Source: Imbricaverruca yamaguchii (lineage: Eukaryota > Arthropoda > Thecostraca > Neoverrucidae). From it: DNA of 64,000 nucleotides. Below the pieces are notes generated by a model. The model was not told the DNA's origin. It saw nothing but the letters and a program-made list of their open reading frames with translations, and made no database searches. A program made the translations under genes and the position numbers. The stretch spans positions 1,686,001 through 1,750,000 of the forward strand of contig JAOTOL010001568.1 in NCBI GenBank assembly GCA_034440575.1, read 5' to 3'. The number at the start of each line of letters is the position of its first letter. Position 1 is the first letter of the stretch. Positions 36,501-37,200 of the stretch are shown here, in pieces.

Positions 36501-37200
36501 TATGATACGCGTCTTCACCTACCTCACTGCCAGCAAGCTATTTGAACCACGAGCCGCAACGTCGGCGAACAGCTCGCCATCCGAGGCCGCTCACCCTTGA
36601 TCCGATCTGGGGACTATACCGCCCGGCCTGCAGGCGGACTATCTCACGCATTTCTCACTGCAATCTCCTCCGGAACCAACCGTAGTCAACTAGAATGACA
36701 CCAAACCGAATCTATTCCATATACAAAATTGACTAGTCGAGGTTGTTTGTTGGGTGGTTCACAACGCACTTTATACACATTCACGGCTGACGCCGTCCAC
36801 TACTTCGCCGGTGGGCCGCGGGATTCGGACATGTCCCGAGCGGCGCTAGCATCGAACCCACAACCCTTGGCACCAATAGCCCAACACCTTAACCACTCGG
36901 CCACCCCGCCCTCATTTCGCGCTGCAATTTCCCCCGGAACTATCAGTAAACTAGAATGGTGCTCAACTGGATCTATTATATATATAAAACTGACTAGTCG
37001 AGTGGTACCCCTCACGATACAAAGGCAGCCCCAGCTACTCAGCCCAGAGCAGGCCACATCGACTCACACAGCGATGAGTTAATTCGGAATTATGAAACCG
37101 AGCAGGAACATATCTCATCCACGCCGAGGAATAACTATCTCACCTTTGATCCAATCTGGTTGCCACATTGGCCGGCCTGAAGGTGGACAATCTCACGCAT
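29522..37200 (-). CDS. Beta-tubulin, three coding exons (37144-37200, 31539-31758, 29522-30585)
   Basis: Beta-tubulin pairs with alpha-tubulin to build microtubules and binds the exchangeable GTP. Joined exons give 446 residues, the normal family length. Visible landmarks: MREIVHLQAGQCGNQIGSK at the N-terminus (MREI is the autoregulatory tetrapeptide; Q11 and C12 contact nucleotide), the GGGTGSG phosphate loop at 140-146, E198/Y200, C239, and an acidic tail after residue 430. Introns interrupt between codons 19 and 20 (phase 0) and within codon 93 (phase 1); both are GT-AG. Residues 231-232 are Leu-Cys where Ala/Leu-Thr is usual, and 218-219 are Ala-Asn. The isotype cannot be assigned from sequence alone. 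Intron 1 (5,385 bp) contains extra copies of the first exon. The reading frame is intact throughout, so the gene is probably functional. Confidence 0.95.
30586..31538 (-). other. Beta-tubulin intron 2 (953 bp)
   Basis: Bounded by GTGAGTGC and CTACCCCCAG on the minus strand. It contains a 12-bp perfect stem-loop at 31308-31319/31327-31338 (ATATATGAGGTC, 7-base loop). No other feature seen. Confidence 0.9.
31539..31758 (-). CDS. Beta-tubulin coding exon 2 (codons 20-92 plus one base)
   Basis: 220 bp encoding FWEIISDEHGIDPTGAYRGD through to GQIFRPDNFVF. The acceptor is TTATGTTGCAG before TTC; the donor is G|GTGAGTGC. In vertebrate genes an extra intron splits this region; here it is a single exon. 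Confidence 0.97.
32216..32290 (+). repeat. tRNA-like sequence (SINE head or tRNA relic)
   Basis: CCAGTTGGTAGAGG resembles a pol III A box and GGGTTCGAACCC is a good B box, about 45 bases apart as in tRNA genes. The acceptor and anticodon stems do not pair properly, so this is not a working tRNA. It lies in beta-tubulin intron 1, antisense to that gene. Confidence 0.5.
36595..36651 (-). pseudogene. Duplicate beta-tubulin first exon, decayed
   Basis: It aligns over all 57 bases with the true first exon 549 bp upstream. Start codon, frame and a GTGAGC donor are kept, but the peptide is MREIVRLQAGRYSPQIGSR: His6, Gln11, Cys12, Gly13, Asn14 and Lys19 are changed. Gln11 and Cys12 normally contact GTP, so a protein using this exon should be defective. 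The leader just before the ATG (GATTGCAGTGAGAA) also matches that of the true exon (GATTGCAGTACGAA). It is either a dead duplicate or an alternative first exon; the sequence cannot decide, but loss of nucleotide contacts favours a dead copy. Confidence 0.85.
36649..36742 (-). repeat. Leader/promoter copy in front of the decayed first exon
   Basis: The ~94 bp upstream of the decayed ATG match 36913-37004 (shared CTCGACTAGTCA, a TATA-like stretch, CATTCTAGTT, CCGG.GGA.ATTGCAG). The TATA-like stretch here is weaker (TGTATATGG) than in the other copy. Confidence 0.75.
36836..36910 (-). repeat. tRNA-like sequence in place of a first exon
   Basis: On the minus strand it begins GGCGGGGTGGCCGAGTGGTT, a Leu/Ser-tRNA-like 5' half with A box, and carries the B-box-like GGGTTCGATG about 50 bases later. 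Acceptor and T stems do not pair, so it is a tRNA-derived SINE head or relic. It starts two bases after the ATG of the third leader copy. Confidence 0.65.
36913..37004 (-). repeat. Third copy of the beta-tubulin leader, without its exon
   Basis: Matches 36649-36742 up to and including the ATG (36915-36913). It has a good TATA-like run (TTTTATATATATAA on the minus strand, about 70-80 bases before the ATG). Immediately after the ATG the tubulin codons are replaced by the tRNA-like sequence. Confidence 0.75.
37144..37200 (-). CDS. Beta-tubulin coding exon 1 (codons 1-19)
   Basis: 57 bp: ATG at 37200-37198, peptide MREIVHLQAGQCGNQIGSK, then donor GTGAGATAG. Phase 0, the conserved position of the first beta-tubulin intron in animals. 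All residues expected to contact nucleotide are present, which marks it as the functional copy. Confidence 0.95.

What the first reader, a model, noticed from the sequence alone, without database searches (positions are those of the whole stretch)
36595..37200. Beta-tubulin first exon duplicated, with a decayed but splice-competent copy
Seen: two 57-bp first exons lie 549 bp apart on the same strand, both starting MREIV, both in phase 0 and both followed by a GTGAG donor. The inner copy has changed residues 6, 11, 12, 13, 14 and 19. Known: Gln11 and Cys12 of beta-tubulin contact the nucleotide, and the MREI tetrapeptide controls tubulin mRNA stability. Inference: if the inner exon is used it would splice correctly to exon 2 and give a full-length tubulin with a damaged GTP site, either a dominant-negative or a noise transcript. 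The intact frame despite six changes in 19 codons is worth explaining.
Basis: partly seen in the sequence, partly recalled or inferred. Interest (0 to 1): 0.78.

Follow-up and report, generated by a model that had tools for sequence, protein, structure and literature searches.

The report
Decayed copy of tubulin first exon
A beta-tubulin gene, probably from a barnacle, carries inside its first intron a worn copy of its own first coding exon beside a jumping-gene insertion; the copy looks like an ordinary decaying duplicate and not a working alternative start.

Summary
In detail: exon A (37200-37144) and inner copy C (36651-36595) lie 549 bp apart, share 44 of 57 bases, both read MREIV in phase 0, and both precede GTGAG. 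In the 767-Mb genome the C region matched only A, B and C; C is nearer to A than to seven paralogs. Polarised with these, 10 of 13 differences lie on C (7 nonsynonymous, 3 synonymous, as expected of neutral change), 1 on A, 2 unresolved. The open frame is weak evidence of use: 25-47% of simulated neutral copies keep ATG and no stop; with indels the joint odds are about 2-27%. All 7 AG acceptors in C's leader would bring a stop behind A. Best reading: a dead exon duplicate later hit by a SINE. No RNA or related genome was available, so lack of use is inferred.

The parts
37144..37200 (-). Exon A: first coding exon of the beta-tubulin gene, 19 codons, phase 0, donor GTGAGA
   Evidence: with exons 2 and 3 it reads as a 446-aa beta-tubulin
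37253..37267 (-). CTCGACCAGTCACTG in the 5' flank of A, 11 of 12 bases like the start of B and C; possible left limit of the duplicated unit
   Evidence: marginal (17 of 1000 shuffles reach the score against C, 371 of 1000 against B)
36913..37002 (-). Copy B: truncated copy, 5' leader up to and including ATG; read here as the left arm of a long target-site duplication
   Evidence: 72 of 90 aligned bases like C, one 3-base gap
36742..36911 (-). tRNA-derived SINE (tRNA-like boxes recognised by eye from recall; ARAGORN finds no tRNA gene)
   Evidence: 17 of 169 bases from the consensus of 27 sampled copies
36649..36741 (-). 5' leader and ATG of copy C; read here as the right arm of the target-site duplication
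36595..36651 (-). Exon C: decayed duplicate of exon A, open frame MREIVRLQAGRYSPQIGSR, donor GTGAGC
31539..31758 (-). Exon 2, acceptor TTGCAG|TTC
29522..30585 (-). Exon 3 of beta-tubulin to the stop codon (start placed by eye from the sequence)

Best explanation
The inner exon is a local duplicate of the gene's own first coding exon (part of the 5' leader, 57 coding bases, donor) lying in intron 1, which has drifted without visible constraint. Later a tRNA-derived SINE inserted at the duplicate's ATG with an unusually long target-site duplication of about 90 bp, leaving the truncated copy B upstream of the SINE and re-making leader and ATG downstream, so that exon C stayed whole. It is intron sequence; if transcribed in the pre-mRNA it should be removed with intron 1. 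Shown: the three copies, the SINE between two of them, matches at this locus only, and the pattern of changes. Inferred: the order of events, the long target-site duplication, and lack of use.
For: 441 bases around C matched only C, A and B in the genome; a first-exon pattern with up to one mismatch gave 9 places, 8 first exons and C, and none for the reversed control; C is 13 of 57 from A and 16-22 of 57 from 7 paralogs. Polarised changes: C branch 7 nonsynonymous and 3 synonymous; A branch 1 synonymous; 2 synonymous unresolved. Changed residues Q11, C12 and G13 are each invariant in 153 of 153 held proteins that begin MRE, N14 in 152 of 153 (153 of 268 held proteins counted). B and C abut the SINE, gaps 1 and 0. 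Ages agree: SINE 17 of 169 from consensus (K 0.108), arms 18 of 90 apart (K 0.233, 0.117 per arm). All 7 AG dinucleotides in C's 93-base leader give a premature stop if C is joined behind A.
Against: No RNA data, so silence is not shown. ATG, frame and GTGAG are all kept, at joint odds of only about 0.02-0.27. Overall dS 0.70 exceeds dN 0.18, which could mean past constraint, though a model with C neutral and A constrained fits (p 0.57). The contrast of branches is p 0.07 and counts the two unresolved changes as A's. Of 59 other SINE copies 41 have short duplications of 8-18 bp, and in that ungapped test the window copy scored within the null; only gapped alignment shows its long repeat. L008 has 74-bp arms differing at 10 of 74 sites beside a SINE 2 of 176 from consensus, so arm divergence is no clean clock.
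Confidence: 0.87

Rival explanations
1. Exon C is a working alternative first exon with its own promoter, giving a beta-tubulin with an altered nucleotide site that acts as a regulator or dominant-negative subunit.
For: Open frame, MREI, phase 0 and GTGAG kept; B carries an initiator-like TCAGTT, and TATA-like stretches lie in B and in the SINE.
Against: Neutral pattern on C (low power); loss of residues invariant in 153 of 153 counted proteins; the initiator-like site reads TCAATT in C; inner N-terminus words in none of the 227 proteins held, which include the 120 listed of 256 hits.
Confidence: 0.04
2. Exon C is a poison cassette: spliced behind A it brings a stop and lowers tubulin mRNA.
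For: All 7 AG acceptors within its 93-base leader give a premature stop; the one at 36659 gives a stop as the first codon.
Against: Weak pyrimidine tracts (0.40-0.71); stops would also arise by chance; tubulin mRNA already has a known control through TTC5 reading MREI (PMC10403363, three passages seen).
Confidence: 0.04
3. B and C were tandem copies before the SINE came, and the SINE landed between them with loss of B's exon.
For: 41 of 59 other SINE copies have short duplications; two of the three with long flanking repeats, L025 and L004, lie in tandem repeats.
Against: It needs the SINE to end exactly at both repeat borders; by divergence the arms are not older than the SINE; L008 shows 74-bp flanking repeats that are not part of an array.
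Confidence: 0.2
4. C was a working exon for some time after duplication and died only around the SINE insertion.
For: dS 0.70 between A and C exceeds what the SINE age predicts.
Against: On the C branch alone synonymous change is not in excess (3 of 10, p 0.71).
Confidence: 0.08

Closest known systems
Duplicated exons and pseudo-exons inside introns (class recalled, no call)
   Same: Local copy of an exon with splice donor in the parent's intron, changing as a neutral copy would
   Different: A second event: a SINE inserted at its ATG with long flanking repeats
tRNA-derived SINE insertion with target-site duplication
   Same: tRNA-like head, many copies, direct repeats at both borders
   Different: Flanking repeats of about 90 bp, against 8-18 bp in 41 of 59 other copies and a 14-16 bp peak for full-length human L1 (PMC2912911, passages seen)
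Alternative first exons
   Same: Phase and donor would allow it
   Different: No sign of selection found and no match to its N-terminus in the 227 proteins scanned

Membership tests
Dead exon duplicate | Homology to one exon of the host gene including the splice signal | tested here: met
Dead exon duplicate | Changes without constraint on the copy | tested here: met
   7 nonsynonymous, 3 synonymous on the C branch, p 0.71 against site counts; few sites, low power
Dead exon duplicate | Absent from mature mRNA | not testable with these tools
   no RNA reads held
Functional alternative first exon | Open frame in phase with exon 2, and a donor | tested here: met
Functional alternative first exon | Purifying selection on the coding part | tested here: not met
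   low power from 10 changes
Functional alternative first exon | Conserved in relatives | not testable with these tools
   no relatives of this genome held
tRNA-derived SINE | tRNA-like head and high copy number | tested here: met
   3337 first-look candidates, 40 scored, 44 matches; head recognised by eye, box consensus recalled; ARAGORN reports no tRNA gene
tRNA-derived SINE | Target-site duplication at both borders | tested here: inconclusive
   gapped alignment gives 90/93-bp repeats with gaps of 1 and 0; ungapped anchored test gives none above the null for the window copy

The most novel reading that the evidence does not exclude
Transcripts that start at or include the inner exon are made, so that this intron supplies a MREI-tagged but nucleotide-site-damaged tubulin, or a stop-bearing decoy, that tunes tubulin levels.
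Probability: 0.05. Interest if true: 0.6.

Novelty: new member of a known kind. Interest (0 to 1): 0.2.

Why it matters
Mostly a caution: an open frame of 19 codons with a kept donor is weak evidence of use, and gene models could take this copy for a real first exon. The odd part is the long repeat at the SINE borders: if it is a true target-site duplication, it shows how an exon can survive an insertion at its start codon.

Tried and rejected
Dispersed repeat that captured a tubulin exon: rejected, the C region matched only C, A and B (with the tool's caveat on very common words). Origin from another tubulin paralog: rejected, C is nearest to A, and BLAST found no leader match between C and the seven others. 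Homology of A's upstream region or downstream intron with B or C: not significant (mononucleotide shuffles, 371 of 1000 against B, 743 of 1000 downstream), apart from a marginal 12-base block against C (17 of 1000). Cluster of C-branch changes in codons 10-14 (7 of 10 within 15 bases, scan p 0.03): perhaps one multi-base event, not explained. The sigma-70 type promoter scan and Rfam at gathering thresholds (0 matches) gave nothing of use. A paper search for a duplicated tubulin first exon (21 papers with 3 of 4 terms, 20 listed, listing only) showed none on the point; some searches were also seen as listings only, apart from the papers named with passages. My first count for the SINE (24 of 170) came from a poorer alignment and was replaced by 17 of 169.

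Full report
WHAT IS THERE. On the minus strand a beta-tubulin gene runs from exon 1 (37200-37144, here A) over a 5.4-kb first intron to exon 2 (31758-31539) and exon 3 (30585-29522). Inside intron 1, 549 bp downstream of A, lies copy C (36651-36595). A and C differ at 13 of 57 bases and at residues 6, 11, 12, 13, 14 and 19, keep phase 0 and are followed by GTGAGA and GTGAGC.

The self-comparison also shows a third, truncated copy, B (37002-36913), like 36741-36649, that is, the leader of C up to ATG. Between B and C lies a 170-base SINE, 36911-36742. The search that showed it had 3337 first-look candidates, of which 40 were scored (44 matches, mostly 84-87% identity). The tRNA-like head is recognised by eye and from recall; ARAGORN calls no tRNA gene in the window and Rfam has no match at gathering thresholds.

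HOST. The genome is 767 Mb in 1430 contigs and is not named. Of 120 listed hits to a divergent beta-tubulin paralog, only one covers more than 91% of it: P0228 of the barnacle Pollicipes pollicipes (88% identity, 98% covered), which shares an Asp- and Asn-rich tail. It is not the top hit by score, and many other tubulins reach 87-88% identity over 85%. So I take the host as probably a barnacle or a near relative, on modest evidence.

ONE LOCUS, COPIED FROM A. A search with 441 bases around C returned only C, A and B (the tool skips very common words). A degenerate first-exon pattern with up to one mismatch returned 9 places: eight first exons, which I assign to beta-tubulin genes by their place beside the matches, and C; the reversed control pattern returned none. 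C differs from A at 13 of 57 sites and from the seven others at 16 to 22, and BLAST finds no leader match between C and these seven. With this pattern none of the seven shows a second first exon; more decayed ones would escape it.

HOW C HAS CHANGED. With the seven paralogs as outgroups, 10 of the 13 differences lie on the C branch (7 nonsynonymous, 3 synonymous) and 1 on A (synonymous). Two synonymous ones are unresolved and lean to A: codon 11 third base (5 of 7 outgroups like C, 2 like A) and codon 7 third base (3 like C, 1 like A, 3 other). The C branch agrees with neutral site counts (p 0.71). A model with C neutral and A allowing only synonymous change expects 37.5% synonymous in all; 6 of 13 were seen (p 0.57). 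The direct contrast of the branches, with the two unresolved given to A, is p 0.07. All this rests on few sites. C has lost residues that hardly vary: Q11, C12 and G13 in 153 of 153 held proteins that begin MRE, N14 in 152 of 153 (268 held, 153 counted). Gln11 and Cys12 of beta-tubulin interact with GTP (PMC8065753, one passage seen), and MREI is the TTC5 target (PMC10403363, three passages seen).

IS THE OPEN FRAME STRANGE? Not very. In 100,000 simulated neutral copies per setting, ATG and an open frame survive in 0.47, 0.38, 0.31 and 0.25 of copies with 7, 9, 11 and 13 changes; an open frame with MREI whole survives in 0.18 to 0.04. The chance of no indel is 0.57 to 0.07 by assumed rate, so ATG, open frame and no indel together have odds of about 0.27 to 0.02. 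The copy was noticed because it begins MREI, which biases the sample. Seven of the ten C-branch changes fall in 15 bases (scan p 0.03).

THE SINE AND ITS BORDERS. In a gapped alignment the left repeat ends 1 base from the SINE and the right repeat starts 0 bases from it; they are 90 and 93 bases long with 18 of 90 aligned sites different. That is the layout of a target-site duplication. The SINE differs from the consensus of 27 sampled copies, which were chosen for likeness, at 17 of 169 sites (K 0.108), and the arms give 0.117 each, so the ages agree. In the anchored ungapped test on 59 other copies (not all independent: L002 and L012 share flanks), 41 have duplications of 8-18 bp above the maximum of 120 mismatched pairs, 15 have none above it, and 3 have long ones: L025 and L004, which lie in tandem repeats, and L008, with 74 bases that are not part of an array, though arrays lie elsewhere in that locus. 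In the same test the window copy scored within the null, because of its 3-base gap and its divergence. Gapped alignment was run on 39 of the 59 (27, 12) and showed no further border repeat longer than about 20 bases. L008's arms differ at 10 of 74 sites although its SINE is 2 of 176 from consensus, which simple ageing does not explain. The long duplication is thus likely, not proven, and a prior tandem pair B-C stays open (0.2). The peak for full-length human L1 is 14-16 bp (PMC2912911, passages seen).

COULD C BE USED? By sequence its donor looks usable. As a cassette behind A, all 7 AG dinucleotides in the 93-base leader lead to a premature stop. As a first exon it would need its own promoter: B has an initiator-like TCAGTT that reads TCAATT in C, and C's leader has GC 0.42 against 0.63-0.66 for A's leader and upstream region. 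Words of the inner N-terminus are in none of the 227 proteins held, which include the 120 listed of 256 hits of a search made for it.

VERDICT. A real and correctly described object, but an ordinary one: most likely a dead local duplicate of a first exon, later hit by a SINE. The long repeats at the SINE borders are the only part with some interest.

Noticed in passing
L008:1416-1489 and 1677-1750: 74-bp direct repeats flank a SINE that is 2 of 176 from the sample consensus, yet the arms differ at 10 of 74 sites; ageing alone does not explain it.
   Followed up: partly
window 36610-36624 (codons 10-14 of copy C): Seven of ten C-branch changes fall within these 15 bases (scan p 0.03), maybe one multi-base event.
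   Followed up: partly
window 1644-10418, 25378-26594, 59145-59809, 62999-63742: Long open frames made of tandem repeats, in two of the stretches open on both strands; probably minisatellites.
   Followed up: no
window 42923-43747 (+): Reverse transcriptase domain (PF00078, E 4.8e-32); a further open frame at 43956-44450 has no Pfam match.
   Followed up: no
G000:C1335:1646057-1677284, outside the window: Matches of another beta-tubulin gene on the opposite strand, converging on the window's gene.
   Followed up: no
L040-L053: More distant tubulin-like open frames (39-42% identity), several spanning nearly the whole query in one frame; L041 has one in-frame TGA.
   Followed up: no
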